A stretch of 64,000 bases of DNA. Origin: Branchiostoma floridae (Eukaryota; Chordata; Leptocardii; Amphioxiformes; Branchiostomatidae). Within the stretch, counting starts at the first letter, position 1. Every line of letters begins with the position of its first letter. The DNA is taken from positions 3,092,788-3,156,787 of the forward strand of contig NC_049995.1 in assembly GCF_000003815.2 (NCBI RefSeq). Direction: 5' to 3'. The position numbers and the translations under genes were made by a program. Positions 9,563-38,207 of this stretch are shown one piece after another. Under the pieces are notes generated by a model. It was not told where the DNA came from. It saw only the letters and a list, made by a program, of their open reading frames with translations, and ran no database searches.

Positions 9563-10749
9563 CTAGAGGCCAAATATTTCCAGAAACTTGCTGTGCGACG
9601 CTTTCCAGTACTTGGAGGCCAAAAGTCTCTTCTTCAGCTTGTTTGCAGCCTCAAACTCCTTTCCCCCATCCTTCAGAACCTTGATGATCCGCTTGGCCAG
9701 TGTTTCAGCGGCTTTATCATCGTCGTCTTCGATCTCCACGATTGGACGGTCGAAATCAGAGTCTTCTCTCAAGAACCAGGCAAGACCAGACTTGTGGGAG
9801 ACCAGGACTGGCACCCCTGCAGCGATAGCCTCCAGACCAACCAGCCCGAATGGCTCTGCACGGGACGGCATCAGAACGACATGGGCCTGCTGCATGTCCT
9901 TGGACAGATCTTCCTGTGTGCCGTACTTTAGGGGTGTGAACTGGAATGTACCCTTCTTCATGTTGGCTTGAATGATTGCCTTGCTTTCTGGGAAATCTTC
10001 GTGACTGATACCGCGGCCTCGCCACTTTGTGTTGGGTAGCTCTTCGATAACTCTGCTCATGGTCTTTGCCGCAAGATCGTAGCCTTTCACCCGCTCGACG
10101 CCCTTGACTCTGCCGATGGACAGTACCACTTTCGTTTCTGTGTCAATGTATTTCACTTGCGTGTTCTGGAAGATAGCAGATGGCTCAGGCAGAAACATTT
10201 GATGACCCTCTTCCTGTCTCATCTCGTTCTTGTAGTAGTCATACACGAGTGGGCCCACCGAGACTACCACATCAGCATGCTGTAGGTCATCCTCGATACC
10301 AGCTTTCTCCTCTTGTATGCTTAACTCCTTCTCTTCACTCTTGTAGCGTGCGACGTCTTCTGGAATGACGTGGGTGACTTGGACGATTTTGGCACGAGGA
10401 AGGCGTTGCGCTTTGATATGTTTTGCTGCGCGGCTTGTGATGTTCACATGACCGACGATGAAGTCGACGTTTGTCGGCAGATTTGGAAAACGACTCTGGT
10501 GATCAAAAGTTAGCCATTTAAGGTCGGGCTTTCTGTCGTCACCCTTAACTGTGTCTGGGAAGATAAGCTCCACACCATCAGCAGCTGCATCATCCTTGTC
10601 CCTCTGGTTGGCATCTAAGACTGTGCTGTAGACCTTTGCTCCTTTTAAAGCCAGGAAGCTCGCCATCTGGCGATGGATGGTGGATACACCCCCTTTGGAG
10701 GTCCCATACTCATCGCTCAGCAACAGCACTACAGGTTTGGCTCCAGAGC
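9563..10749 (-). CDS. Exon 23: GT4-family glycosyltransferase, terminal exon
   Basis: The 395-residue segment begins after the acceptor GTTAAAAG in phase 1 ([16 protein letters not shown]) and runs to the stop at 9563. Two Rossmann halves are recognisable (GT-B fold). The C-terminal half has SIGR...KGYDLA and [14 protein letters not shown]; the last contains the retaining-GT4 EX7E pair (Glu3205 and Glu3213), which binds the nucleotide-sugar donor. Donor sugar and acceptor cannot be read from sequence. The open frame extends upstream to a methionine at 10936, but that extension looks intronic. Retained catalytic residues suggest an active enzyme. Glycosyltransferase-tipped immune proteins are not a standard metazoan arrangement. 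Confidence 0.85.
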
Positions 10750-13700
10750 CTTTTAACAAAGAATAGCAAGCAAACGTTGGAAATATAAAGTTTCTCTGCC
10801 ACGGAAAACGGCATATTTGTTGCACTAAGGTTTTAAAAAATGGACAAAAAACAAGATGCATATGTTTCTCAGGAGATGCCTTGTCGACAAATGGAATAAG
10901 AATCAATTGCAACATTTTCTGTATCTGATAAATCATGGTTTAACAGAGATGAAAACAACTGTCGTAACTGTGCACGTAAATGTATAATGCTGTAAGACTT
11001 GCATTTTGTTTATATCAGCTGCCATCGAAATTTTCTTTTTCTTTAAATCTTATAAATGGTAAAGAAAGTAAAATACGATTGAGAAATCTGGCCTGATTCG
11101 GAATTTGAATCTCTATCTACGTCGTATTTCTCAAGTATGCAAAAAGTATGAAGCAACTTCTTCTAAATAGTAAAGGATGTAATTGTCAATAATAAAATGG
11201 TGTTGCCTGGCATCTCAAGTTAATTCCTACCTGCTGCACTAGAATCCGGTCTGATATCACTGAGCACGGCTTCAGGTTGGAGAGTTTGGGGAGGATGAAG
11301 GTCATCGGTCCTGTTATAGTGATCTAGCAAGCGTGACGAAAAATAAAATGAGCGCTAACACTTGCCCCGCCCCGAGNNNNNNNNNNNNNNNNNNNNNNNN
11401 NNNNNNNNNNNNNNNNNNNNNNNNNNNNNNNNNNNNNNNNNNNNNNNNNNNNNNNNNNNNNNNNNNNNNNNNNNNNAGTGAGCGTAGCGATCTCGGTGGT
11501 TTATTCGGTGGTTATCGCACCTGACCAGGGATTATCTCACCATATACACCGAGGATAAGGCGGGGCATTAACGTTATTATCATATAGCCTATCCAACTGA
11601 CAGTTATTTCACACAAATTCCTTTATAACAAATAAAAACTTTAATACATTACATAAAAATACATTTGCAATATATATATTGTACAATAGTGTCTATATAT
11701 AATACAAACATTAAACTATTTCATCATCATCATTTAACTAATAATTTTAACTAATCATCTGTTTGTGAGATAGCATATCAGCATCAACATGTGGCTTATT
11801 TGCAATACAAACTACATGTATTAAGTGGAGTCCTGGTACCCCCCCATGCAGAGCCTTTTCACTTGGGCACGACAAAGTACGTATATATGAAGTGATTTAG
11901 GAAGGTACCGGCTTAATCACGTTAGAAAGCCATAATGAAAATGTGTAGAATCAGCATAATTCCTTTTCAAGTATCCCTATATTCCCCATGTGGAGCCCTA
12001 ATTAACATAACCAATCAATCATAATATTTTTGACAGTTATGCATGGTTTACACACAAACAACAGTACAAAAAAAATTCATGACTGTCCCCTGTATAATGG
12101 TGCGGTCCAAAAAGTGGTCGGTTATTAGAATAACCGACCACTTTTGAGGTTACTGCCTGATAACCCATGGGAAATGGGGGCCTCTGATTGGCCAACTCCA
12201 TCTGGCTATATGATAATACCTGTTAATTTTGTTGACTCCAGGTGTCTCCTCACAGATTCCAGCTCTGTTGGTGTTGAATGGCCACTGTCAACTCCTTCAG
12301 CTATTCGACTTCGCTTGTAACGCCCTGAATAAATTTAATGATTACTTATAAACGTGGTAAGTTCATACTCTTCAATCTTCGTTCATGCTCTTCGTTATCC
12401 TCTTGTTAATCGTTTTCCTCTTGGTAATCTTTATAAAACCCAAGTAAGAAATGAATACATAACATCGAAATCAATGACCGAGGATGAATTACCAAGTATC
12501 AGTTGTGAAAGCGGCTCAGTCTCCTCCGCTTCATCGCTGGTATCCTTCAGTAGTTCCAAATGCAGAAGTGATGTGTTGTCCATCCAGATATCGGCAGTAA
12601 CCATTACTTCGAACGGTTCGTAGAATTTGTTTGTCTCAAGTGTGTCTTCGAACATAAGACGCTGAAGATTAGAAATACAATACTGAATAAACAAAGGCAC
12701 TATACGGAATATGCATACATTGTCCTCCGTAATATATTTCCTAAATATGATTACTTCGGTTTATCAAAAGCATTTTGTCCATGATAAAATGTGCAGGTAC
12801 AAGTATATAGGAAGTGGTAAGCATCAATCAGCAGCAATGTCAACTACAATTTATGTTGATCAACACACCTTTGGTGAAATAGTCACCATCTCGCTTCCCC
12901 CGTTTGTAACACTCCCCTCCAGGTAGTAGAAGTCGCCAGGGTTTAAATGGCAGGTTTTGTAACCGCATGGCTCAAATTTCTCGACTTTCGCGTCCTCCGT
13001 TATGGTCTATAGCAGTTAATGAACACAAGAAGGCACGAGAAGACAATTAAGGTTGAGTTGTATGTTAAAAATGAATTGACTTCAACGTGTTCAAAATGAC
13101 ACACAAATCGTCGAATTTGGAATGAAGTTACAATGTGTACTATGAGTACATCTCACACATCCTCACCTCTTTTATATCTTTAGTGTTGGAGACGATGTAG
13201 GCTTTCAATGTAGAAAGGTCAGAGTCATCTAAAGAGCGGAACGCCATCAGTAGGCAGTTCCTAGATACGCTAAACACCTTTGTGGTCCTCCCCACCACAC
13301 CAAATAGACTGCCTTTCTTGAACCTGGTCACCGCGTGGGAAGAGGTGAGTTCTGTGACCGGCAGCAGCTCGATTGAATCACCAACTACGTGCACGACTTG
13401 TAGGTCTTCTCTCGTGACAACTGAAGTAAAAAGTACAATCAGTGATGGTTTTGAACATTTTTGGAAATGCAAAAAAAAGAGTGTAATTAATCATCGAGGC
13501 ACATAGCACTATCTTTTGTAAATTTCATCTCTTTCAGAGAAGGAGTATCTAATAACTAACTTTTCTCATAATATGACCTGAAATATCTTGAAAAAACTGC
13601 TTGGAAAACAAATAGATTCCTATCAAGTTCAGTGCTTAAGGTGTGCATCTGTAATGCATATGTGTTCTCCTTACCTTTATTATCAGCCAGATGCAGCACG

Positions 13701-16700
13701 TGCGGCAGTAGGATGTCCACCGGCCCCTCCACATCCTCACACTGGATGGAGACGAGCGGACCCACCGGCATCCATTCCCCCACCTGCTGCCAGTTGTCGG
13801 ACCAGTTCGCACTCCTGTAGGTCACGTGCAGCAAGTAGGGCGTCACCACGCCCAGGTCGGTCCGTCTGCACAGGTACTTCCCTTCACCTGGCAGGCGGAG
13901 GGACCTGAGGAGAGAAACACAGGTATCATACTTGGTTCCGATTATATGTCAGGCCGAGAAAACAACAATAATATGTATTTAGATAGTCTGCATCAATTAT
14001 TGTTTGCGTTGTCTTTGTTAGGTACATACAGGTGACTTAATGACTCATTTATGAACCAGGAGTTCTAAACATACTACTAAATGTCAAATGCTAACGAGGT
14101 AACTCACCAGGTTCTGTCTTCGTTCATGTCTGGGCTAAGCTTTGTCAACTTCAAGCCATTCCGGTACTCCTGAGATGTACAAAGAAAACATTGATGAGTC
14201 TGTTTTCAGAAGGACATGTAACGAATTGACATAATGGGTTTCTGTATGGCATTGGCATAAAATGGAAACAATTATACAATGTAACAATGTCTTTAATAGA
14301 CTCTATGTTTTTACACGATAGCTGTTGTTCTTGGCTGGTGTGTTCTCCTTTCCTTCTTTCCTTTTTTAATATAGGAAGACAAAACAAAAATAGTAGAGAC
14401 CATACGTTAGTTGACCCTTAAGATTATAGGTACACTAATGAAATATATGTTTGGCTCTTCTTCTGTCAAACAAGTAAATGTACTGTTACAGCCCCATTAA
14501 CGCAGAAAGTAGTCAGAAAATTGAGGAGTGAAAAAAAAAACACTTCAGAGGCCAACATGAGAGGCAGGCAGAGAAAATTGCTCTCCAAGCAGAGGCTAGA
14601 GGTTGAATCGCGTAGATATAGTGGTAGTCTTTAGAAGAGCGCCAGTGTAATTAACGACTACTACTATATCTACGCGACTCAACCTCTGCTTGGGGAGTGC
14701 GAGAAATGATGGGAGGACATCATCTCACCTTGTATGTCTCCTGTACAGCTGCAGCCAAATCCGGCCTGGCGATGTTCTGCAGTGCTTCCTCCAGCTGTGG
14801 CAGGTAGTGGAGCGGTCCGTGGGGGGTCTTGATTCGCCACGCCTTCAGCATCTGCATTGCCGCCTGGGTGTCGTCATCACCTTTCATCTCGTCCAAGACA
14901 GACTTTTCCAGCCCCATTTCCTGTCCCAGTCGGGTCCACTCCTCACCGAGAGCTTTGCTGATCTGGTACAGCCGGGCCTCTGTCGAACAAAATTGACATC
15001 AACTGTTAAAAAGTCGAAGCATCCCACAGAGGTAGGCTGTCTGACGGTTTCATGCGTATTACCAGCCGTGGTGCTAACGTCTACCTTGTCCCCCCAACGA
15101 CCTGGAGGTCAAGGGACTAGGTAGGTAGGTAGGTAGGTAGGTGCTAATATGTACTACAGGCAATTGAAAGAGTAAATATGGTTAAGAAATATTTTCAAGA
15201 TTTTTTGGCAATGTCGAATTTGCAGGAATATCGAGGATTAGCATTCAACGATGACGATTGCCTGGACCTGGGTCAACTAAGATCACCTGCAGTTAAGAGT
15301 CAAATATAACTAACTTTTCAATGTCCTTAGAATTTGGGCACACATGTTAAGTCAGTGAATTATCTAGATTGGCAGGTAATGCCGTTATCATCACTCACCT
15401 TCTTGGTCGTCTATCACGAGCTGTAAAAAGAACAAAAAAAGGAATGTTAAAAATTCTCTTTTACAAATTCTTTCAAAGTAAAATGATGAATCCATAATGG
15501 CGATATTGCAAATATGACAAAACCTTTTGTACAATATCCCTCAGTTTCCTCTCTGACACGAGACCTCCTTTCATCTCTATCTCCTCGCGGTTCATGCTGT
15601 CCAGCACAGGGGCGCGTCGCTGGAGCACCCGGACAATCTGGTCTCTGGAACCCTGTGGGTACAGTAGAACGGGCAACAGGAGCCTCTCGTTCCGAACTGG
15701 GAACTCGTAGTCCAGGTTTGACCAGTGCTTGTGGTGTAGTGCCTGGGGACTGATGACTAGGATAACCATCCTGTTCTTTGTGTTGAGCAGGAGTTCCACT
15801 GTTTTCTCTGTGATGGAGTCAGTAGACGTGATCATCTCCGTACGGTGGGGCACTCCTGACTCACTCATGGCTGTCTGGAGAGGGGAGACGAACTCTGCAG
15901 TGTAGTCATCTGTGTGTAGGATCATGAGCTCTTTTCCTGCAAAGAATTTACGAATACATAATAGGTTTTTTCTTTGAATTCAACATTTTTCTTTCCAAAA
16001 AGGACAACAAACTCTGTACTGAAGCATGTAAAGGTACTTTTGTCTCGTACCTAACCTATAAAGCATCTTCACTTGAAAAAAATCAATTGTTTCCCTAAGT
16101 TTTGTGGTCCAAGACTAGAAACTAGAAATGTCATACCTCGTTCTTCTCTCCTGAAGAGATCCTTAAACTCTGGGAGGCACATTTCCACCGCGGCTCCCAG
16201 CATGTACTCCTGTACTTCCCCTCTCCTCTTTATCTCCAGAACCGTTCGTATCCGCTGAACAGGTGTCAGCTGGCTCCTGATATGGTCACACTGGTCCAGA
16301 GTCAGTCCTCCTCCCTGCTCCATAGTGTCCAACACGGGGCCGATTGTGTGCATCCCAACAATGAGGTTAGGGTCTCCTTTTGGCTGGAGGATCACCGGAC
16401 CATCCCCTCCTGAGTTTTCTGTAATTTTACAACATTGGTTATATTACCAGTCGAGAGAAGTTTCATATCAATTCATTTGTAGACATATCAATGTTATCAA
16501 ATACACAGCATGTGGCCTCTTTTCTGGCTTACAGGATGGTCATTTGTTACCGTAATTTCTTACCCTACTTGAGGACTGAAAGTGAATTGAGAACAAATGG
16601 GTACGTAAGAATGCAATATTCCTCATAGGATTACCTGTAAGTTCGGAGTGTGGCCCTTCGGACATCCAAACGGTGCGGAAGAGGGATGGAAATCTAGTAT

Positions 16701-19700
16701 GAAAAAAAATTGAATGTGCTTTTTATGAAGTAAATTTAATGACAAGATGAAATAGAGTATTTCCTTTGTACTATTCATATCCTTTAAAGAAAAATATCAA
16801 CAACTTCGAATTGTAACTTCTTCTGTTAATCATCCTTCATCGACATTGTATTTTTCATGTCGGTGAAGCAGGTTAGCAGATCAGAAAACAGGAATCAATG
16901 GGATGGACCAGCAGATAATTCTTTTAAGCTCTAGTTGCACAAGACAAAGAAGAAACATACCCCCAACGCTGTCCCAGTTCCCCTTCACCCGTTGGCAATA
17001 CCCTGAATGCAGGTTCACCTCCATCCTCTTGTGTAGAGCAGCACAGCTCGTACTGGATACAGGGGATCCACTTCTCTTTGATCTCAAACAAGGCGCTGCT
17101 GAGGAACTTCCTAACCCGCAGACCTTCCGTAAGTATGTTAGAAGACGATAGAAGCTCCACCTTCAAGTAGTGGTTGACCTTGGTGATGACAAATGCTTGC
17201 TCCTCATCGTCCGTAGGGAAGCGACCACAACCGGCAAACACGCTGGACTCTTGTAGTCCGAACCTGCGCACACACAAGGCTTGTAGACGACAGAACATAC
17301 CGCTTGGTAGAAACTTCTCACTGAACACAAAGTAGAGCGCCTGTGGACATATATGCATGTTGCCGGGATACAACATGGTGTTGTCCTTCTCACAGCTGAG
17401 GAGTGCTGGCACGAAATAGATCTCTTCCTGATGGGATTCTTCCATGACATCACCTACTGGGGTGGCGTTACAAATTAGATAGAATTTCTCCATGAGCGCC
17501 TTCAGGAAGGACTTGTGCTGGAGCAAAAATGGTTTATCCAGTTGTTGGTCCTTCTTTTCCCAAATCCTTGTCAGCAACTTATCGCTGAGGATTCCATCGT
17601 TTTCCAACCTCTCCCACATCTTCCTTACTTCTGGATCCGTCTGTCTGTCTTGTTGGTACTGAGGAACTGTGATGATGGTCTTGAAGACGTCAATCATCAC
17701 CTGGGGCTGCAGAGTGACGTCTTCACGGAGACTGGGCTCGTCAATAAAGATGATGTCACCACGATCGTGGAAGAAGCTGAGAACCAATGCGAGGATGTGC
17801 TTGTCTGTGATGTTGATGTCAGGATGTTTGGCGAGTTTTGCTATTTCCTGGAACTTGAGGAACCGCTTCCCCTCCTCTCGCTTTTTCCTCAGTTTAGACA
17901 TGAGATGCAGCCACGAGATGGGGATTTCCTCGCCCATGTGCGGCAGACCTCTTGCCACCTGTAGTAAGTAGTTACGAATCTCGTCAACTACGGCGTCCTC
18001 AGTTGTGTTGTCCACTGCAAATATTTCTGGCATGACCAGCATTCCGGCTGCCTTTCCCTCGAGATGGCTCCTTATGTCCTCCTTGTATTCTGTAATGTAT
18101 TCCTGTAGAACACCGATGGAGTTTTGTGTAATCACTAAACTAATTTGTAACAGTATTTGTTCAACATATATCAGATTAAGTACCTTCCATTGAAATACAC
18201 AATGCATAGAATACAAAACAGTAGGAAGACTTATATCAAAATTACCGGGTGTTCTACTCCAAATCGTAGAAAACATGTACCTTTGTTCCCATGCCGACCC
18301 AATGAGTAAGGCAAGGTACTGTATTTTGTTGGGTATAGATACTATAAGAAGGAATTCGTTCACCACTATGATAACCATACCTGTGAGACCTTGTCCTTGT
18401 TTGTGAGGACGACAACGACTGGAGGCCGTCCTGTGTTTTGAGGTTGCATCTTTCCCTCGGGTTTGCCTAAGTGTTGAGTGTGAGAGCAAACCGAATTGAG
18501 CCAGTGGTCCATGTAGTCTGTGGAGAAAGACGTACGAACATGTTAAGAAAACGCTCTTTCAAAATAATTGTCATACCATGTCTTGCTACATTTTCTGTAC
18601 ATTCGCTAAAGGCAGAAGGTATTCTGGTTGCCTTGTTTGTTGTGTGATTTAGTATCTATTCCTCTTCGTATCTGTGATCAGCATAACTCAAGAATGTCTC
18701 GGTGGCTTGTGATGATAGTTGGCTTGTGGCTTGTTGGTAATGAGACCTCGAAGCTGATTGTTATTGTGCTGTATCAGAATTCTGGGGGTTGTGTTTTAGC
18801 TGAATATGGTACGGTCCTCAAAGAATTGTGGATGGATCTTTGGGTTGACAAAGAAGTGACAGGGGATACGGGCCTCCTGGCAGATTTGTTGCAAGGATTT
18901 TTCTGCATGAGAGGTCAAAACGGAATGACTCGAGATTAATATTATACCAGCGGACTGGCTTGATTTGTGGATTGTAGGTAGCCAATATGCACATGATTAG
19001 ACAGTAATGATGCAATTATGGAGTTGCGTAATAAATAATGGACATTTGTAGCGGGACTTCTTTTTTCGGACCTTTTGATCTTGAGATATGGTATGATCAC
19101 CAGATTAAAGCGGTACAATGTTTCTGAAAGTACATTGCCGCTTGTGTCACGAAGGTTGAATCTGCAGATCGAGGTTGACTTATTTAAGTAGTACTTTTCT
19201 AGCTCTAAACCAGGTTCGTATTAAGACGTACCTCCTCCCGTTCTCAGGTTGTCCACAGATGCCTTGTTGTCCATATCTGGTACAGGGTACGACAGTTTCT
19301 GCAGCAGAGACATGACGAGGATGTAGACTCCCCGGGGGGTGATGAAGCAGTGGTGGGTTCCGTAGTAAGTCGCCTGGCCGCCGAAATCCCAAAACGACAA
19401 ACGCGGATGTTTGACAGTTCCAAGATCTTCTTTCAATTTGGTAAAACCAGCATCTTGCATTCTCTTCACGGTCTCCGCGACACTGCCGGGAATCACCGTG
19501 GGACGTACTGACACGTCTCTTATATCTTCTTCTAGCATTTTTGTTTGTCCTTGATGCTTGAGAATATTATCTGATGAAGTCACAGCCTGTTGTCCCGGCT
19601 TTGAGGTCCCTGTCTTTTCAAGTGACCCACGACTGTCTTCTGCAAGGGGACGATACGGATTTTGGAATTTTGAACGTTTTGGTACTTATTCTGGATGAAA

Positions 19701-34700: not shown

Positions 34701-37700
34701 GTTCGCCAGGCCTCCATCCGGGTGATTTGAAGTGAATCACCAACTCCCGACAGAAGGATTTGCACCAACGCACACCGCACCATCGCACGTGTGGGGTTCT
34801 TTAACGTGCATGGGGTATGGCTCTCCCCATACACGGACCTCCATTTAACGTCCTATCAGAGGGACGACTCATTTTTCACTTTAGTAAAGTGAGGAAAGTC
34901 GTGTTAAGTGACTTTCCCAAGGGCACAAGACCGGCAACACCGCAGGCGGATTCGAACCGGCGACCTCTCGGTCACGGGCCGAATACACTACCACTGTGCT
35001 AACTTTCTACAATTACAATCGCTGCACACCCAAATGCATGTATCATGAAAATCCATCCAGGGCTTTTCGAATTATGTTGTTACAAAATATAGACAAACAC
35101 AATGATACAAAGCCAGCTGCAGTACCGCAGGAAAACGCTAGATAAACCATTTTCGACATTGACCTTGCTTCCCACAAGCGCTACGCACTTGCCAAATATC
35201 ACGATGATCCATCCACAGCTTCTTGGTCATGAGTTGTTGACATACATACAGACCCACTACACCATGGCGCAGCTGAAAAAATAACCTTCTTTAACCTTCT
35301 TGACGAAGTTAAAAAAAACACAAGAATAACATGCCATATTTCAACCAAAGCTGAGAATACAGTGACAAAATTACCTTTCACATGAACGACCTTAAGCGCA
35401 GCTGCAAAGTAGCGTTCTGCCGTATCCAGATCCCCTGTCTGCAGGGCCCTGCAGCCCTCCTGTAGGAGTTCTATGTAGTCACTGTAGCGGTGTAACAATT
35501 AGATGTTTGTATATTACACATATGCTTTGAAGTGAAAACTTGATGAAGGATTATATCAACATTGGCAGGGTTTCATATATTTACATCATTGTTTTACAAC
35601 ATTATGAGTGCCTTAATCTATAGTTGTCCTTGGTAAATTCTTTTCACGGAAAAAGAAGTTGAAGACCTCATACCTCCGTCAATTATTAATTTTTTTGTAA
35701 ATCTATGTTTTGTGATCATGCAAAAATGGGCCCTGGTTAGCTATAGCATACTCCTCTATGTCCATTGATGAGCGCCAACACCTAAATCACATGTCACTAG
35801 GGTGTAAGAATCAAGACTACTTGATAGCCTCTACTCATTTGTTATGCAAATGACGTCCAAGTATATATACCATTTATGCATGATTATAGCAACCTTTGAT
35901 TAGCTAACATACCGTCCTTTCCATTATTTACCAAGGCATAGTAGCGCGTTCCTATCATTAGTAATGTTCTGCCCACCCTACGCACTATGTATGAAACTCC
36001 TATTCGAATGCCAGAGCTGTTAACTTTGGTCTTTAGATAAACCCATTTACTCCCTCATTTGCATAATTGATTATGAGCTATCATAAAAAAACACTTGTTC
36101 TGTTAAGTGTTTCTGAAAAACGCCCCTGCAGTTCCATGTTTGCGAAAACGCCCATGTAATTCTCAATACCTGTCAGTCTGAGGTGAGACCATTTTGACCT
36201 TCTGTTCGATGTAAACTTCGTGTTAGTCTACAGGTTACACCATTTTACATTTCATATACTCTTTCATTTGTAACATACAGTAGGCGATANNNNNNNNNNN
36301 NNNNNNNNNNNNNNNNNNNNNNNNNNNNNNNNNNNNNNNNNNNNNNNNNNNNNNNNNNNNNNNNNNNNNNNNNNNNNNNNNNNNNNNNNCAGGGATTATC
36401 TCACCATATACACCGAGGATAAGGCGGGGCATTAACGTTATTATCATATAGCCTATCCAACTGACAGTTATTTCACACAAATTCATTTATAACAAATAAA
36501 CACTTTAATACATTACATAAAAATACATTTGCAATATATATATATTGTACAATAGTGTCTATATATAATACAAACATTAAACTATTTCATCATCATCATT
36601 TAAGTAATAATTTTAACTAATCATCTGTTTTGTGAGATAGCATATCAGCATCAACATGTGGCTTATTTGCAATACAAACTACATGTATTAAGTGGAGTCC
36701 TGGTACCCCCCATGCAGAGCCTTTTCACTTGGGCACGACAAAGTACGTATATATGAAGTGATTTAGGAAGGTACCGGCTTAATCACGTTAGAAAGCCATA
36801 ATGAAAATGTGTAAAATCAGCATAATTCCTTTTCAAGTATCCCTATATTCCCCATGTGGAGCCCTAATTAACATAACCAATCAATCATAATATTTTTGAC
36901 AGTTATGCATGGTTTACACACAAACAACAGTACAAAAAAAATTCATGACTGTCCCCTGTGTAATGGTGCGGTCCAAAAAGTGGTCGGTTATTAACTTATT
37001 AGAATAACCGACCACTTTTGAGGTTACTGCCTGATAACCCATGGGAAATGGGGGCCTCTGATTGGCCAACTCCATCTGGCTATATGATAATGATTAACAG
37101 GTGGGCAGTACTAGTTGTATTATGTAACGCACAATTAAACTTTGGCGAGTGGTCAAAGGTAAATGACCTGATATGACTCATGGAAGACCGACTCAAAAAT
37201 GTCCGCTTATGGACTCTATTCAAAGCATATTTTGCTCTTTGAACAAGATCTTCGTCTACGCACACAGACAAAAATAGTGACGTGTACGTAGACGAAGATT
37301 GAGAAATTCCTTAGGTATTGTGTCCCTGAAAACATACATGAACCCCGCCCATAATTTTTCTAACCGAAGTAGGAAATAGCAATTAGGTACATAAATGAAG
37401 AAATTGATATCATCCTTTCATTGGAAATCGTCCTTGAGTTATAGCAATAATCGTATTTCAAGATTCTCTTTTCCTTATGCAAAATTGATATAAAAGATCA
37501 CTCACACTCGTCTTTGTTGCGGCGATATCTTGCCTGATTTTTGCGGTGTACAGTAAGCGATGGACAATGACAACTGTTCCCTGAAAGTTGTTACACCGCG
37601 CCAGTGCCGTGTTGTACAGAGCAGTAGCTTTGGTCAAGTCTCTAGTGTCTCCAGTTTCTGTTCCTCTTTTCAGGTACACGTCACCGAGACTTTTGATTGC

Positions 37701-38207
37701 TTCTGTTTCTAACATGTTGTTGTTGTTTACTATTCCTTCTACCATCAACTGTGCGTATCCAACCAGCATAGGTTCTGTTTTATAACCGACAGCTCTTTTC
37801 TTGTCCAGTTCTATAAACTTTCCAGCCACTTTTACAGCTGTAGTCGTCTCCTTGTCTTCAGATTGTTGTTCCTTACCCTGTGACCCATTTGACGTCATTC
37901 CTTGTAAAAGTCTCTCCGCGTATTTGTACCTGTGTTCTATACCTTCTTCCTGATCCCGATGGCCACATCGGACCATAGCAGCCACGTAAAGTGCCAAGGC
38001 CATGTTAAACTTCCCTGCATTTTTCCAGAGTCTTCCCTTCTCCAAGTTCACGTCGCCCAGACTTTTGAGCAGCTCCACTTCCGCCAGCCTGTCCATGTCA
38101 GCCATGGCGTCCACCAGGGCACGGAGGTAGCCTGTCTCCGCACGGGCTAGCCCGTACCTCCTGCCCTTCGCGTCCGCCTCACGGAGTTTCTCACAGACCC
38201 TCAACAT
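9563..38207 (-). CDS. Giant multidomain NTase-TPR-Roc-COR-CARD/TIR/Death-FIIND-GT4 protein
   Basis: Twenty-three exons with GT-AG introns join without a frame break into 9906 nt (3301 aa). Order by residue: helical repeats 1-330; nucleotidyltransferase about 350-800; 16 TPRs about 800-1490; Roc GTPase 1492-1833; COR 1834-2200; CARD-like 2234-2327; TIR-like 2328-2465; Death 2472-2556; FIIND-like ZU5-UPA 2576-2800; linker 2800-2906; GT4 glycosyltransferase 2906-3301. No signal peptide or membrane helix is seen, so it is probably cytosolic. Death-fold, TIR, Roc-COR and FIIND modules are all used in inflammasome, apoptosis or immune scaffolds, so a sensor role is inferred. The start is the ATG in GCCATGTTG at 38207. 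Weakest joins: exon 1 to 2 and exons 20 to 23. Two adjacent genes remain possible, but the GT4 exon has no start of its own and this is the only upstream gene on the strand. Confidence 0.72.
11231..11323 (-). CDS. Exon 22: linker before glycosyltransferase
   Basis: Ninety-three nt, phase 1 to 1, with acceptor GCTTGCTAG and donor CAG|GTAGGA. It encodes an acidic, Pro-rich linker ([18 protein letters not shown]). It has no fold signature; it is accepted because its phase joins exon 21 to the GT4 exon exactly. Confidence 0.55.
11352..11574. repeat. Palindromic repeat interrupted by assembly gap
   Basis: GCGCTAACACTTGCCCCGCC before the gap (11377-11476) pairs with GGCGGGGCATTAACG after it. The post-gap segment from 11526 is identical to 36390 onward, which also abuts a gap. 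Hairpin structure probably caused both assembly breaks. Confidence 0.6.
11526..12217. mobile_element. Nonautonomous DNA element, copy A
   Basis: Nearly identical (about 98 percent by eye) to 36390-37091. Inverted ends ATTATCATATAGCC (11576) and GGCTATATGATAAT (ending 12217) bound most of it. An internal hairpin, AAGTGGTCGGTTATT...AATAACCGACCACTT, lies near 12112-12147. There is no ORF. Its right end stops 3 bp short of exon 21, directly after the splice donor GT. Confidence 0.8.
12220..12324 (-). CDS. Exon 21: basic linker
   Basis: One hundred five nt, phase 1 to 1, acceptor ATTTATTCAG, donor ACAG|GTATTA. It encodes [18 protein letters not shown] and onward, a low-complexity basic to Ser/Thr-rich linker. 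An earlier donor (TCT|GTGAGG) exists but breaks phase with exon 22. Confidence 0.55.
12493..12661 (-). CDS. Exon 20: end of UPA region
   Basis: Fifty-six codons after the acceptor ATCTTCAG, opening [18 protein letters not shown] and ending with an acidic stretch. It continues the last UPA strand from exon 19 (ISPK|RLMF), matching the SPKEL-F pattern at the end of UPA domains. Donor CTTG|GTAATT. Confidence 0.7.
12869..13006 (-). CDS. Exon 19: UPA domain, C-terminal strands
   Basis: Forty-six codons, phase 0 to 0, beginning [10 protein letters not shown] and ending [10 protein letters not shown]. In FIIND and UNC5/PIDD/ankyrin proteins the UPA module shows the same late L-PGD-Y...-ISPKEL pattern. 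Confidence 0.72.
13167..13420 (-). CDS. Exon 18: ZU5-UPA junction with FIIND-type His/Ser pair
   Basis: The exon encodes the end of ZU5 and the start of UPA. The stretch [17 protein letters not shown] aligns without gaps to the NLRP1 and CARD8 self-cleavage region, placing a His (codon 13337-13335, about residue 2682) at the catalytic His and a Ser (codon 13310-13308, about residue 2691) at the nucleophile. The residue before Ser is Gly rather than Phe. [12 protein letters not shown] begins the UPA. Self-cleavage is inferred from these residues only. Confidence 0.72.
13675..13904 (-). CDS. Exon 17: ZU5 domain of FIIND-like module
   Basis: [20 protein letters not shown] and [15 protein letters not shown]...[11 protein letters not shown] reproduce the FIIND/ZU5 core (CPDTGL..., VAGPLFDI, VHLPHFV in NLRP1-type proteins). 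Phase 2 to 1. Confidence 0.78.
14108..14169 (-). CDS. Exon 16: Death-to-ZU5 linker
   Basis: Sixty-two nt, acceptor ACATCTCAG, encoding [20 protein letters not shown] and ending at a split Trp codon, donor TG|GTGAGT. Phase 0 to 2 fits both neighbours. Confidence 0.7.
14581..14697. repeat. Foldback element in intron
   Basis: Arms 14581-14630 and 14656-14697 are inverted copies (CCAAGCAGAGG...CCTCTGCTTGG). The right end is about 30 bp from the Death-domain donor at 14728. A related inverted pair is at 55085-55266. Confidence 0.75.
14729..14979 (-). CDS. Exon 15: Death domain
   Basis: A classic Death-domain pattern fills the exon: [18 protein letters not shown], then VLDEM, then [10 protein letters not shown], then [19 protein letters not shown]. 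Death domains mediate homotypic assembly in apoptosis and NF-kB signalling. Acceptor TTCGACAG, donor AAG|GTGAGA, phase 1 to 0. Confidence 0.88.
15060..15142. repeat. Retroelement-like 3' end with (GGTA)n tail
   Basis: A body matching 715-775 is followed by six GGTA units. It lies in the intron upstream of the Death exon. Confidence 0.5.
15399..15420 (-). CDS. Exon 14: 22-nt micro-exon
   Basis: LVIDDQE plus one base, between acceptor TTTTTACAG and donor GAAG|GTGAGT. Phase 0 to 1 is exactly what the TIR-like and Death exons need, and the splice sites are strong. Confidence 0.65.
15524..15936 (-). CDS. Exon 13: TIR-like domain
   Basis: About 137 residues with alternating beta/alpha pattern: [14 protein letters not shown] (strand A, helix A), [21 protein letters not shown] (strand C region), [19 protein letters not shown] (strand D). 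This matches TIR layout. The residue four after the box Trp is Asp, with Glu two further on, so NAD hydrolase chemistry is uncertain; an assembly role is equally likely. The donor AAG|GTTTTG is weak. Confidence 0.72.
16137..16418 (-). CDS. Exon 12: CARD-like death-fold domain
   Basis: Ninety-four codons, phase 1 to 1. The segment [20 protein letters not shown] followed by [21 protein letters not shown] and a helix ending LPEFKDLF has the helix spacing of a CARD (helix 2 Leu...D..I, then Ile/Leu-rich helix, then K-RG turn). The assignment is by pattern only; another six-helix death fold is possible. Confidence 0.65.
16635..16693 (-). CDS. Exon 11: short linker
   Basis: Fifty-nine nt, acceptor CATACTAG, donor ACAG|GTAATC, encoding [19 protein letters not shown]. 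Phase 2 to 1 connects COR to the CARD-like exon. Confidence 0.65.
16961..18102 (-). CDS. Exon 10: COR domain
   Basis: Three hundred eighty residues after acceptor TTCTACAG, phase 0 to 2. [25 protein letters not shown] and [22 protein letters not shown] are hallmark COR segments, followed by [16 protein letters not shown] and a beta-rich region. COR domains mediate dimerisation of Roco proteins and couple to the preceding Roc GTPase. Confidence 0.85.
18381..18517 (-). CDS. Exon 9: Roc GTPase, G4 motif
   Basis: Starts [13 protein letters not shown] and ends [19 protein letters not shown] is the guanine-specificity motif (N/TKxD). Acceptor TCTCCACAG, donor CAG|GTATGG, phase 1 to 0. Confidence 0.85.
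18640..18945. repeat. Fragment of GGGCCCCCTAGCGGC-type repeat family
   Basis: CAGCATAACTCAAGAATGTC and the following segment match the 5' part of the copies at 27004 and 62993. It lies in the Roc intron. Confidence 0.45.
19232..19639 (-). CDS. Exon 8: Roc GTPase, G3 motif
   Basis: One hundred thirty-six codons. A Lys/Glu-rich front leads into [24 protein letters not shown] is the G3 (switch II) DxGGQ motif of Roc domains. Then [11 protein letters not shown]. Phase 1 to 1. Confidence 0.85.
19775..19849 (-). CDS. Exon 7: symmetric mini-exon in Roc insert
   Basis: Seventy-five nt, phase 1 to 1, encoding [18 protein letters not shown] and onward; acidic and disordered. Because it is symmetric it could be skipped without frame change. 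Confidence 0.65.
19895..20098. repeat. MITE with TACTGTAAA termini
   Basis: Ends TACTGTAAA and TTTACAGTA are inverted copies. The interior is full of CGCGGT/ACCGCG inverted motifs (TTCGCGG...CCGCGAA). About 204 bp, in the intron between exons 6 and 7. Confidence 0.7.
20433..20519 (-). CDS. Exon 6: symmetric mini-exon in Roc insert
   Basis: Eighty-seven nt, phase 1 to 1, encoding [20 protein letters not shown] and onward. It is Ser/Thr/Glu/Lys rich, a probable flexible phospho-acceptor segment. Confidence 0.65.
20654..20728 (-). CDS. Exon 5: symmetric mini-exon in Roc insert
   Basis: Seventy-five nt, phase 1 to 1, acceptor CTCTTTGCAG, encoding [20 protein letters not shown] and onward. Amphipathic rather than globular. 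Confidence 0.65.
21419..21661 (-). CDS. Exon 4: Roc GTPase P-loop
   Basis: Eighty-one codons, phase 1 to 1, acceptor [29 protein letters not shown] is a Walker A/G1 motif (GxxxxGKT) typical of Roc domains. Donor CCAG|GTGAGA. Confidence 0.87.
22101..25778 (-). CDS. Exon 3: nucleotidyltransferase domain plus 16 TPRs
   Basis: A single 3678-nt exon, phase 1 to 1. The front (to about 24240) carries helical repeats and a nucleotidyltransferase core: [19 protein letters not shown] has the GS...DxE signature of the DUF294/GlnD-type Pol-beta superfamily, with Gly-Ser near residue 431 and carboxylates Asp443 and Glu445. The rear (about 24230-22110) is 16 tandem TPRs of about 44 residues of the kinesin-light-chain type ([20 protein letters not shown]). 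Amphioxus is known to carry many related NTase-TPR proteins; that relation is recalled, not searched. TPRs likely bind ligand or partner. Confidence 0.88.
22110..24230. repeat. 16-copy 132-bp tandem repeat (TPR-coding)
   Basis: Each unit codes one TPR. Units are highly alike, most strikingly 22327-22468 and 23518-23659, which differ at a single visible base. Two units have small in-frame indels (GDTAH and GELEKTAH at the repeat junction). Confidence 0.9.
26291..26478. repeat. MITE with about 40-bp inverted ends
   Basis: Left arm 26291-26332 (GTCACTGTGGCC...) and right arm 26439-26478 (...GGCCATAGTGAC) are inverted copies around a TA/GATGAT-rich centre. A half-copy of the left arm, inverted, lies at about 25870-25950. 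Confidence 0.7.
26500..26640. repeat. Interspersed repeat, pair with 56186-56330
   Basis: The reverse complement of this segment matches 56186-56330 (GAGGTCACCTGAGT, CAGACCCTTGCGATTTAG, CCCACCCAATAACAATA in the same order). No ORF. Confidence 0.6.
26641..26850 (-). mobile_element. tRNA-derived SINE, partial
   Basis: Read on the minus strand, a tRNA-like head (TGGCGCAGCGG A box, and a degraded B box in GAGCTCGAATCC) is followed by a body with CACGTTAAAGAACCC and CACACGTGCGATGGTGCGG, both shared with the copies at 28946 and 34509. Confidence 0.75.
27004..27960. repeat. Interspersed element with GGGCCCCCTAGCGGC cores
   Basis: Starts TACCTTTGCCAGAATGGCTAAGG, a short palindrome after TA. It carries two GGGCCCCCTAGCGGC blocks (27149 and 27281) and several ATTTGCATAATTAAT motifs. 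The same order occurs at 40801-41862 and 62993-63330. Noncoding. Confidence 0.7.
28515..28722. repeat. Interspersed repeat, copy 2 of 2
   Basis: Pairs with 951-1262; it shows the same block order and the same terminal ATATTTC/GAAATATA palindrome. Confidence 0.5.
28946..29325 (+). mobile_element. tRNA-derived SINE
   Basis: The head contains A box TGGCGCAGCGG and B box GGGTTCGAACCC with tRNA-like spacing, so it is not an intact tRNA gene but a SINE promoter. The body has CACGTTAAAGAACCC and GCACACGTGCGATGGTG. It ends in (CCAAA)n. It sits in the 9.6-kb intron of the giant gene. Confidence 0.85.
29500..29760. repeat. Interspersed repeat related to 34990-35245
   Basis: Shares CATGAAAATCCATCCA, CAGCTTC and TACCG(A/C)(C/A)GG(A)AAA segments with 34430-34508 and 35011-35245. 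No coding evidence. Confidence 0.5.
30148..31615 (-). pseudogene. CR1/L2-like non-LTR retrotransposon, 5'-truncated and frameshifted
   Basis: The frame 31609-31325 encodes [13 protein letters not shown] (RT motif 1-2). A frameshift near 31350 moves into 31332-30148 with motif [12 protein letters not shown], motif [11 protein letters not shown], catalytic YADD and the typical C-terminal [17 protein letters not shown]. The endonuclease is missing and the frame is broken, so it is immobile. It lies in the giant gene's intron between exons 2 and 3, in the same orientation as the host gene. Confidence 0.87.
31758..33786. mobile_element. pogo/Tigger-like DNA transposon, decayed
   Basis: Terminal inverted repeats CAGTCAAACCTGCCC and GGGCAGGTTTGACTG are each flanked by TA, the target duplication of the Tc1/mariner superfamily. 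Near both ends a GACAGGTGGTCGCTGAGAAG motif repeats. About 2 kb. A minus-strand remnant at about 33054-32897 ends IDDFFKKS, like the C-termini of pogo-class transposases. No intact transposase is present. Confidence 0.75.
34501..35010 (-). mobile_element. tRNA-derived SINE with target duplication
   Basis: The element 34509-35002 on the minus strand has B-box-like GGTTCGAATCC at the right, and body blocks CACGTTAAAGAACCC and GCACACGTGCGATGGTG reversed. At the left is a (TTTA)n run, the reversed tail. Direct repeats CTTTCTAC at 34501-34508 and 35003-35010 are the target-site duplication. It split an older interspersed repeat. Confidence 0.85.
35375..35470 (-). CDS. Exon 2: helical repeat
   Basis: [20 protein letters not shown] and [11 protein letters not shown] form a TPR-like helix pair. 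The donor AAAG|GTAATT (phase 1) fits exon 3 exactly. The 5' boundary is less sure: acceptor CATAG at 35471 keeps phase with an exon 1 donor at 37507; an upstream acceptor (TACAG at 35482) would not. Confidence 0.65.
36390..37091. mobile_element. Nonautonomous DNA element, copy B
   Basis: Near-identical copy of 11526-12217, differing by a roughly 9-bp insertion in the central hairpin and a few substitutions. Its left side is cut by the gap 36290-36389. It lies in the intron between exons 1 and 2 of the same gene that hosts copy A. Confidence 0.8.
37508..38207 (-). CDS. Exon 1: N-terminal helical repeats
   Basis: The first 233 residues start [15 protein letters not shown] at an ATG in good Kozak context (GCCATGT). 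Repeated helix pairs are visible: [14 protein letters not shown]...[12 protein letters not shown] and [14 protein letters not shown]...[12 protein letters not shown], matching a third in exon 3. This is the standard front of amphioxus NTase-TPR proteins as I recall them. The donor could be A|GTGTGA or two bases later; only the former keeps phase. Confidence 0.8.

What the first reader, a model, noticed from the sequence alone, without database searches (positions are those of the whole stretch)
9563..38207. One gene joining NTase, TPR, Roc-COR, CARD-like, TIR, Death, FIIND and GT4 modules
Twenty-three exons splice with compatible phases into 3301 codons with no internal stop. The combination covers ligand-binding repeats, a nucleotidyltransferase, a GTPase switch, three adaptor folds, a self-cleaving-type module and an enzymatic tip. 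I know of no described protein with this order. Inference: a cytosolic immune sensor-effector built as a single chain.
Basis: partly seen in the sequence, partly recalled or inferred. Interest (0 to 1): 0.92.

Follow-up and report, generated by a model that had tools for sequence, protein, structure and literature searches.

The report
Giant lancelet sensor-switch-glycosyltransferase gene
A very long lancelet-like gene appears to join a repeat-built sensor, a GTP switch, several immune-adaptor modules and a sugar-transferring enzyme in one protein, an extreme example of the domain mixing already known in this animal's immune genes.

Summary
The observation largely holds. On the minus strand, 21 exons (35481 to 9563) join through 20 GT-AG introns with matching phases into 3,040 codons and one terminal stop. 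Pfam finds DUF294 nucleotidyltransferase, TPRs, Roc, COR-A, Death, FIIND plus UPA, and GT4-conflict; CARD- and TIR-like modules rest on weak matches. The doubtful TPR-to-Roc join passes over an in-frame TAA and an AATAAA, but two paralogous loci keep the same phase-1 donor and acceptor. FIIND and GT4, when within 6 kb, always lie in this order and strand (22 of 22 pairs).

The N-exon and GT4 joins each cross a 100-N gap. The FIIND scissile pair is Gly-Ser, so self-cleavage is unproven. The TIR lacks the usual catalytic Glu.

Best reading: a ROCO-type immune sensor-effector in a genome resembling Branchiostoma floridae. Parts and logic are published (PMC8195603); this order was not found. No transcript data were available.

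The parts
37506..38207 (-). N-terminal exon (234 codons, TPR-like), membership uncertain
   Evidence: Open frame starting MLRVCEKL; at least 151 genomic matches; on contig C174, 11 of 12 full-length N-exons have a listed NTase exon 4-8 kb downstream on the same strand (by eye). Phase 0 out does not fit exon 35481 (phase 2 in); linker exon not found; a 100-N gap at 36290-36389 lies between.
35375..35481 (-). Exon 2: TPR-like ([18 protein letters not shown]...), phase 2 in, 1 out
   Evidence: Homologous exon precedes the NTase exon in C17:14.06M, C7:1.009M and C174:335k.
22101..25778 (-). DUF294-type nucleotidyltransferase plus tandem TPR exon; donor GGCGGCG|GTAAGAG, phase 1
   Evidence: Pfam DUF294 5.9e-5, TPR_12 7.2e-135 with 14 stretches; same donor in two paralogous loci.
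22087..22089 (-). In-frame TAA just after the TPR donor; an AATAAA begins 72 nt after its first base (possible short isoform)
21419..21661 (-). Roc exon 1 (P-loop GQYRSGKT)
   Evidence: Pfam Roc; acceptor and 5' residues conserved in relatives.
20654..20728 (-). Insert exon within Roc
   Evidence: Phase 1-1, GT-AG.
20433..20519 (-). Insert exon within Roc
   Evidence: Phase 1-1, GT-AG.
19775..19849 (-). Insert exon within Roc
   Evidence: Phase 1-1, GT-AG.
19232..19639 (-). Roc exon with WDFGGQ (G3)
   Evidence: Pfam Roc 4.9e-6; conserved in four paralogous loci.
18381..18517 (-). Roc C-terminal exon with TNKDK (G4)
16961..18102 (-). COR exon
   Evidence: COR-A 1.8e-11; 38 genomic matches.
16635..16693 (-). 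Short linker exon, phase 2 in, 1 out
   Evidence: 78.9% identical in C17:16.17M, no match in the three other loci searched.
16137..16418 (-). CARD-like exon, phase 1-1
   Evidence: No Pfam match; six-helix model, mean pLDDT 77.5; leading Foldseek matches are CARDs (best E 0.2, prob 1.00; none at E 0.001); Apaf-1 CARD E 0.39 by profile.
15524..15936 (-). TIR-like exon
   Evidence: No Pfam TIR; profile matches 7uwg ('Molecular chaperone Tir') E 0.0096 and AbTIR 8g83 E 0.018; alternating strand/helix model, mean pLDDT 65.1.
15399..15420 (-). 22-nt microexon
   Evidence: Acceptor and donor both above the 99th percentile.
14729..14979 (-). Death domain exon
   Evidence: Pfam Death 4e-10; dN/dS 0.31.
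14108..14169 (-). 62-nt linker exon
13675..13904 (-). FIIND, ZU5 half
   Evidence: Spliced FIIND 3.1e-31; dN/dS 0.49.
13167..13420 (-). FIIND end with the KKGS site, then UPA
   Evidence: UPA-FIIND 6e-7; dN/dS 0.19; Lys-Gly invariant in 17 of 17, Ser in 16 of 17 copies aligned.
12869..13006 (-). UPA exon
   Evidence: Conserved in C17:16.17M and C3:32.34M.
12493..12661 (-). Exon after UPA
   Evidence: Conserved in C17:16.17M and C3:32.34M.
12220..12324 (-). Last linker exon before GT4, phase 1-1
   Evidence: Conserved in C17:16.17M and C3:32.34M, but dN/dS 1.02 on 34 codons, not lower than in shifted frames.
9563..10749 (-). GT4-conflict glycosyltransferase exon with stop
   Evidence: Pfam PF20706 2.1e-77; 94 genomic matches; E-x7-E conserved in all 10 aligned.

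Best explanation
One gene encodes a ROCO-type (Roc-COR GTPase) immune sensor-effector of more than 3,000 residues. Shown: the modules, a phase-consistent exon chain, conserved joins in paralogous loci, and coding-type substitution in most of the 3' half. Inferred mechanism: the TPR array with the nucleotidyltransferase binds a ligand or partner; Roc-COR acts as the GTP-dependent assembly switch; CARD-, TIR- and Death-type modules recruit partners by homotypic contacts; FIIND/UPA restrains or organises the C-terminal half; the GT4 tip glycosylates an invader or host target. Paralogous loci carry other combinations of the same parts, which suggests exon shuffling; many module borders are phase-1 introns.
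For: Phase-consistent chain. TPR-to-Roc: GTAAGAG donor and AG|AA acceptor at phase 1 in the window, C17:14.06M and C17:16.17M, the latter two without an early stop after the donor. In 16 of 16 Roc loci (window plus 15) residues before the window's Met align and, read by eye, an AG sits at a phase-1-compatible place (one, C3, ambiguous); C172 has no Met there, so Roc needs an upstream coding exon. FIIND-to-GT4: 22 of 33 FIIND loci have a GT4 exon within 6 kb, and all 22 pairs have GT4 downstream on the same strand (many lie in tandem clusters, so the pairs are not independent); C3:32.34M keeps the 12324-type exon and phase-1 join. Roc loci with same-strand GT4 within 16 kb downstream: 9 of 32. 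Pooled dN/dS 0.35. In 4 of 5 bacterial relatives scanned GT4 is C-terminal, twice behind a weak NACHT-type match and once behind CATRA-N. Published effector logic: PMC8195603.
Against: In-frame TAA and AATAAA right after the TPR donor; some stand-alone relatives end at about the same point. A badly tuned automatic model split the region into three genes. A 100-N gap and a repeat of about 700 bp that starts directly after the donor GT lie between exon 12324 and GT4. The GT4 exon is only 43% identical to the one beside the otherwise near-colinear C17:16.17M paralogue. Exon 12324 alone shows no purifying selection. Near COR loci, 4 GT4 exons lie upstream on the same strand against 9 downstream. 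Weak sites at 16418, 15524 and 12220. No bacterial relative scanned has Roc-COR, and in one of five (L051) GT4 is N-terminal. No RNA evidence. Immune function is inferred from families only.
Confidence: 0.75

Rival explanations
1. Two adjacent genes: an NTase-TPR gene that ends at TAA 22087 with its own poly(A) site, and a separate Roc-COR-CARD-TIR-Death-FIIND-GT4 gene whose first exon was not found.
For: TAA and AATAAA; of the 91 listed NTase matches only two lie just upstream of a listed Roc locus (by eye; the NTase list is truncated); some stand-alone relatives end a few residues after the same final helix, e.g. L025 and L027; 13 of 15 other Roc loci show no TPR in the upstream stretch I held.
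Against: Conserved donor and acceptor in two paralogous loci where the TPR frame runs on past the donor; only 439 nt between the two parts; the Roc exon is not a start exon in relatives. For 12 of those 13 loci only 1.4-2.1 kb upstream was held, so absence means little.
Confidence: 0.15
2. The GT4 exon belongs to another gene or was placed here by a scaffolding error at the 100-N gap.
For: The gap and the 97.6% repeat copy at a second gap in the same window; the closest GT4 relatives (75, 70 and 69%) lie on C2, C8 and C11, contigs without a listed Roc locus.
Against: FIIND-GT4 order and strand in 22 of 22 close pairs; phase-1 donor and acceptor; same exon order in C3:32.34M.
Confidence: 0.12
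3. A decaying or non-expressed mosaic pseudogene.
For: Retroelement and repeat insertions in introns; a few weak splice sites.
Against: No internal stop in 3,040 codons; pooled dN/dS 0.35; intact P-loop, G3, G4, NTase and GT4 motifs.
Confidence: 0.07

Closest known systems
Bacterial AP-GTPase (Roc)-COR conflict proteins with C-terminal GT4, TIR or caspase (PMC8195603, section 15)
   Same: N-terminal repeats, Roc-COR switch, C-terminal GT4 in the effector position.
   Different: Repeats are LRR there and TPR here; no CARD-Death-FIIND chain or NTase is described for them in the section read.
Metazoan GT4 conflict proteins (coral and other invertebrates; PMC8195603)
   Same: Same GT4 family; fused to immune-type domains.
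   Different: The section and passages seen describe TRADD-N, LRR and other partners; no Roc-COR plus GT4 fusion in an animal was mentioned there.
NLRP1 / CARD8 (FIIND proteins)
   Same: FIIND (ZU5-like plus UPA) and death-fold modules in a sensor chain.
   Different: No NACHT match and no LRR match; Gly-Ser instead of Phe-Ser at the cleavage site; the C-terminal tip is a glycosyltransferase, not a CARD.
TPR-ROCO-TIR of the red alga Chondrus crispus (mentioned in PMC11378527, passages seen)
   Same: TPR, Roc-COR and TIR in one protein.
   Different: No Death, FIIND, NTase or GT4 mentioned in the passages seen.
Stand-alone lancelet NTase-TPR genes (same genome)
   Same: N-exon, exon 2 and NTase-TPR exon series.
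   Different: Those examined with a recognisable end stop after the TPRs.

Membership tests
GT4-conflict glycosyltransferase (PF20706) | Full-length profile match above cut-off | tested here: met
   2.1e-77, 261.2 bits against a cut-off of 26, positions 1-381 of 385
GT4-conflict glycosyltransferase (PF20706) | E-x7-E motif (motif recalled) | tested here: met
   EPFGLVGLE in the window; both Glu invariant in all 10 aligned copies
GT4-conflict glycosyltransferase (PF20706) | Sugar-transfer activity | not testable with these tools
   Needs enzyme assay
ROCO (Roc-COR) proteins | Roc followed by COR | tested here: met
   Roc 1.1e-9 and COR-A 1.8e-11, both above cut-off, in the spliced stretch
ROCO (Roc-COR) proteins | G1, G3 and G4 GTPase motifs (motifs recalled) | tested here: met
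   [12 protein letters not shown] and TNKD in the spliced frame
FIIND proteins (NLRP1/CARD8) | FIIND and UPA profiles | tested here: met
   FIIND 3.1e-31 (3-128 of 131); UPA-FIIND 6e-7, 30.4 bits against 27
FIIND proteins (NLRP1/CARD8) | Phe-Ser autoproteolysis pair | tested here: not met
   Gly-Ser aligned to CARD8 Phe-Ser; Gly in 17 of 17 and Ser in 16 of 17 copies aligned. hNLRP1 F1212A is listed as autoproteolysis-deficient (PMC7483925, passage)
NLR (NACHT) receptors | NACHT or NB-ARC module | tested here: not met
   No NACHT/NB-ARC match; the switch is Roc-COR
Death domain | PF00531 above cut-off | tested here: met
   4e-10, 40.1 bits against 22.6
TIR domain | TIR profile or fold | tested here: inconclusive
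   No Pfam TIR; 7uwg E 0.0096 and AbTIR 8g83 E 0.018 by profile; low-confidence model, fold search never ran
TIR NADase | Catalytic Glu four residues after the conserved Trp (place recalled) | tested here: not met
   Aligned to AbTIR WTNYE, the window has WSNLD; Asp in 4 of 5 and Ala in 1 of 5 copies
CARD | CARD profile or fold | tested here: inconclusive
   No Pfam match; leading Foldseek matches ASC, CARD8 and Apaf-1 CARD, best E 0.2
DUF294-type nucleotidyltransferase | PF03445 above cut-off | tested here: met
   23.4 bits against 21, E 5.9e-5, positions 22-102 of 138

The most novel reading that the evidence does not exclude
A single polypeptide carries a complete defence circuit: two putative enzymes (an N-terminal nucleotidyltransferase and a C-terminal glycosyltransferase) flank a TPR sensor, a GTPase switch and three adaptor modules, with a FIIND subfamily whose scissile pair has become Gly-Ser (Lys-Gly invariant in 17 of 17 copies aligned). 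That subfamily either keeps self-cleavage with a new residue pair (as recalled for SEA modules) or has turned the FIIND into a non-cleaving hinge. Core and tip differ between loci, so the genome may encode a combinatorial set of such chains.
Probability: 0.3. Interest if true: 0.82.

Novelty: new variant of a known kind. Interest (0 to 1): 0.62.

Why it matters
If transcribed as modelled, it would put a sensor, a GTP switch, adaptors and an effector enzyme in one chain in an invertebrate chordate. That would link the bacterial Roc-COR plus GT4 defence design to animal death-fold signalling. The locus family also gives a concrete test of module swapping at phase-1 introns, and the Gly-Ser FIIND subfamily makes a sharp biochemical question: does it still cut itself?

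Tried and rejected
Rejected: (1) taking the TAA at 22087 as the gene end, because two paralogues keep the splice join. (2) The first automatic gene model: it over-predicted tiny and zero-length exons, was contaminated by intron similarity to C17:16.17M, and split the region into three genes (TPR, Roc and COR in the first, CARD to exon 12324 in the second, GT4 in the third); it did choose the TPR-to-Roc splice. I replaced it by hand-read sites. (3) An exon list with two wrong ends that broke the frame; corrected. (4) Filing it as an NLR or as a self-cleaving FIIND protein. (5) Calling the exon after TIR in C17:14.06M a ZU5: by eye only; the first 200 of its 343 residues gave no Pfam match. (6) NTase against solved structures: nothing convincing (best E 0.14). 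(7) CARD+TIR as one single sequence against the PDB: nothing useful.

Not done: the Death-exon genome search (got no answer and was not repeated); the fold search of the TIR model (queue full at every try).

Literature: the statement that this order was not found rests (listings), passages of PMC8195603, PMC2575513, PMC11378527, PMC12373286, PMC7483925 and PMC11760013, and section 15 of PMC8195603. Subscription papers, supplementary tables and NCBI annotations could not be searched, so a deposited gene model with this order may exist.

Full report
WHERE IT IS. The window is G000:C17:3092788-3156787 of a 513,431,437-base assembly in 431 contigs. Size, contig count and gene content look like Branchiostoma floridae; this naming is recalled, no call gave it. 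Everything below is on the minus strand.

THE MODULES ARE REAL. Pfam on stop-to-stop open frames gave TPR_12 7.2e-135, DUF294 1.3e-4, Roc 4.9e-6, COR-A 9.8e-12, Death 1.8e-11, FIIND 4.3e-19 and GT4-conflict 2.1e-77. On spliced pieces, FIIND rose to 3.1e-31, UPA-FIIND appeared (6e-7), Roc reached 1.1e-9 and DUF294 5.9e-5; COR-A was 1.8e-11 and Death 4e-10. The CARD- and TIR-like exons have no Pfam match. Their support is weaker: a profile of five lancelet copies finds 7uwg ('Molecular chaperone Tir') at E 0.0096 and AbTIR 8g83 at E 0.018; the CARD profile finds Apaf-1 CARD at E 0.39, behind a TAL effector at 0.17. The CARD model has six helices (mean pLDDT 77.5), and its leading Foldseek matches are CARDs (ASC E 0.2 prob 1.00; CARD8 E 0.34 prob 0.99; none at E below 0.001). 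The TIR model is of low confidence (mean pLDDT 65.1) and its fold search never ran.

THE EXON CHAIN. Exons 35481-35375, 25778-22101, 21661-21419, 20728-20654, 20519-20433, 19849-19775, 19639-19232, 18517-18381, 18102-16961, 16693-16635, 16418-16137, 15936-15524, 15420-15399, 14979-14729, 14169-14108, 13904-13675, 13420-13167, 13006-12869, 12661-12493, 12324-12220 and 10749-9563 join in phase, with GT-AG at all 20 introns, into 3,040 codons and one terminal stop. I picked the sites by hand from splice scores, frames and paralogue alignments, so the phase match is not by itself an independent test. Site strength: 18 of 21 acceptors and 17 of 20 donors exceed the 90th percentile of the region. 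The two clearly weak sites are acceptor 16418 and donor 15524. A first automatic model had split the region into three genes, with COR and everything upstream in one, CARD to exon 12324 in a second and GT4 in a third; it was badly tuned and I discarded it, but it is a result against one gene.

CODING SIGNAL. Against the near-colinear paralogue at C17:16.17M, seven exons (Death, TIR, ZU5, UPA and the three following; 512 codons) give dN/dS 0.35 pooled: 0.31, 0.31, 0.49, 0.19, 0.49, 0.42 and 1.02. Reading the same alignments in shifted frames gives 0.56 to 3.26, above 1 in 11 of 14. The exon 12324-12220 alone does not show selection: its in-frame 1.02 is above its shifted 0.86 and 0.56.

THE TPR-TO-ROC JOIN. 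The TPR frame runs into a TAA that begins 11 bases after the donor's first G, and an AATAAA starts 72 nt after the TAA begins. Some stand-alone relatives end a few residues after the same final helix (for example L025, L027), so a short product is possible. Three facts favour splicing. First, C17:14.06M and C17:16.17M keep GTAAGAG at the same phase-1 place after the same final helix, and their frames run on for about 110 and 30 codons into what would be intron. Second, both have the Roc exon behind an AG at the same phase, with alignable 5' residues. Third, in the 16 Roc loci (window plus 15), residues before the window's Met align, C172 has no Met there, and a phase-1-compatible AG is visible in all (one, C3, ambiguous; read by eye). 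Among the 15 relatives, 2 have a TPR array in the upstream stretch I held; for 12 of the 13 others only 1.4-2.1 kb was held.

THE FIIND-TO-GT4 JOIN. GT4 exons begin with a phase-1-compatible acceptor in the window and in seven relatives read by eye (C2 least certain), so they do not look like gene starts. Of 33 FIIND loci, 22 have a GT4 exon within 6 kb, and in all 22 pairs GT4 is downstream on the same strand, with none upstream or opposite; many are in tandem clusters, so they are not independent. C3:32.34M keeps the whole series FIIND, UPA, 13006-, 12661- and 12324-type exons and GT4, with phase-1 donor and acceptor at the last join. Against this: a 100-N gap at 11377-11476 and a repeat of about 700 bp (97.6% identical to one at 36390-37091, also next to a 100-N gap) lie in this intron, and the repeat begins directly after the donor GT.

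THE START. That N-exon is a member of a very large set (151 matches as a floor); on contig C174, 11 of 12 full-length copies have a listed NTase exon 4-8 kb downstream on the same strand (by eye). It ends in phase 0, while exon 35481 begins in phase 2. In C7:1.009M and C174:335k a linker exon of about 37 codons with good splice sites fits between them. The window yielded no candidate at that threshold and no convincing similarity; the exon may be in the gap at 36290-36389, lost, or replaced.

FAMILY CONTEXT IN THE GENOME. Matches: GT4 94, COR 38, NTase 91 listed, with only 90 of 585 candidates scored, FIIND 57 pieces, Roc 33, UPA 29. Of 32 Roc loci, 30 have COR within 6 kb downstream, 9 have GT4 within 16 kb downstream and 4 have FIIND within 15 kb. 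GT4 within 15 kb of 32 COR loci: 9 downstream same strand, 4 upstream same strand, 0 opposite. By eye, only the window and C17:14.06M have a listed NTase just upstream of Roc; since the NTase list is truncated, this is a floor. C17:14.06M continues with CARD- and TIR-like exons, an unassigned exon and a Death domain (3.5e-17), so the same core seems to carry another tail; I did not model its splicing. C17:16.17M has TPR-Roc-COR-CARD-TIR-Death-FIIND and then a GT4 only 43% identical, and no NTase in the 12.8 kb held upstream. No other locus with all modules was seen in these capped lists.

ACTIVE-SITE READING. Roc keeps [12 protein letters not shown] and TNKD; about 150 residues are inserted between G1 and G3. 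The NTase keeps [16 protein letters not shown]. GT4 keeps E-x7-E in all 10 copies aligned. FIIND: aligned to CARD8, Phe-Ser is replaced by Gly-Ser; over 17 genomic copies (34-100% identical, of 29 UPA matches) Lys-Gly is invariant and Ser is kept in 16 (Thr in one). In hNLRP1, F1212A is listed as autoproteolysis-deficient (PMC7483925, passage), so cleavage cannot be assumed; yet the invariance suggests the site still matters. SEA modules that cut at Gly-Ser are a recalled parallel. TIR: the residue aligned to the AbTIR Glu after Trp is Asp in 4 of 5 and Ala in 1 of 5, which favours an adaptor.

MECHANISM. See Best explanation. Only anatomy and conservation are shown; ligand binding, switching, recruitment and glycosylation are inferred from families. 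A scan of prokaryote genomes found 36 loci encoding GT4 relatives; 5 open frames were scanned. In 4 of 5 GT4 is at the C-terminus: two with weak NACHT-type matches below cut-off (L052 NPHP3_N 0.0017, L054 NACHT 9.8e-4), one with CATRA-N (L056, 1.6e-21), one with no other domain (L053); in L051 it is N-terminal. None has Roc-COR. This fits, but only partly tests, the effector position proposed in PMC8195603.

NOVELTY. PMC8195603 (section 15 read, other passages seen) describes GT4 effectors in animals and bacteria and bacterial Roc-COR proteins with LRRs and C-terminal GT4 or TIR; passages also mention FIIND and TTC28-like TPR fusions to TRADD-N. PMC12373286 (passages) states that B. [quoted passage not shown] No paper holding amphioxus, Roc-COR, Death and TIR was found. 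So this is an extreme new variant of a known kind, not a new category.

Noticed in passing
window 43805-45661, minus strand: CUB (6.4e-16), WSC (6.8e-18) and SRCR (7.4e-16) exons of another, probably secreted or receptor-type gene.
   Followed up: partly
window 30151-31362 and 4538-5335, minus strand: Reverse-transcriptase open frames (RVT_1 2.3e-23 and 2.7e-17); the first sits in the intron before the NTase exon.
   Followed up: no
window 11526-12217 and 36390-37091: Two 97.6% identical copies of a repeat of about 700 bp, each near a 100-N gap.
   Followed up: partly
G000 C3:32161429-32162468, 32342512-32342881, 33299175-33299675: Tandem repeats, about 131 bp apart, of the first 36 or so residues of the FIIND exon in the C3 cluster.
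   Followed up: no
L049, L050 (C174:335601-341600, C7:1008901-1012000): A conserved linker exon of about 37 codons between the N-exon and exon 2 of stand-alone NTase-TPR genes.
   Followed up: partly
L010/L009 (C17:14.06M): Sister architecture NTase-TPR-Roc-COR-CARD-TIR followed by a Death domain; a 60-nt in-frame tandem duplication within its Roc exon.
   Followed up: partly
UPA exons of the window, L014, L044, L045, L087-L099: Invariant Lys-Gly with Ser (16) or Thr (1) at the FIIND scissile position in 17 of 17 copies aligned.
   Followed up: partly
G000 C7, C4, C174: Dense tandem clusters of NTase-TPR genes, at least 91 NTase and 151 N-exon matches in the genome.
   Followed up: no
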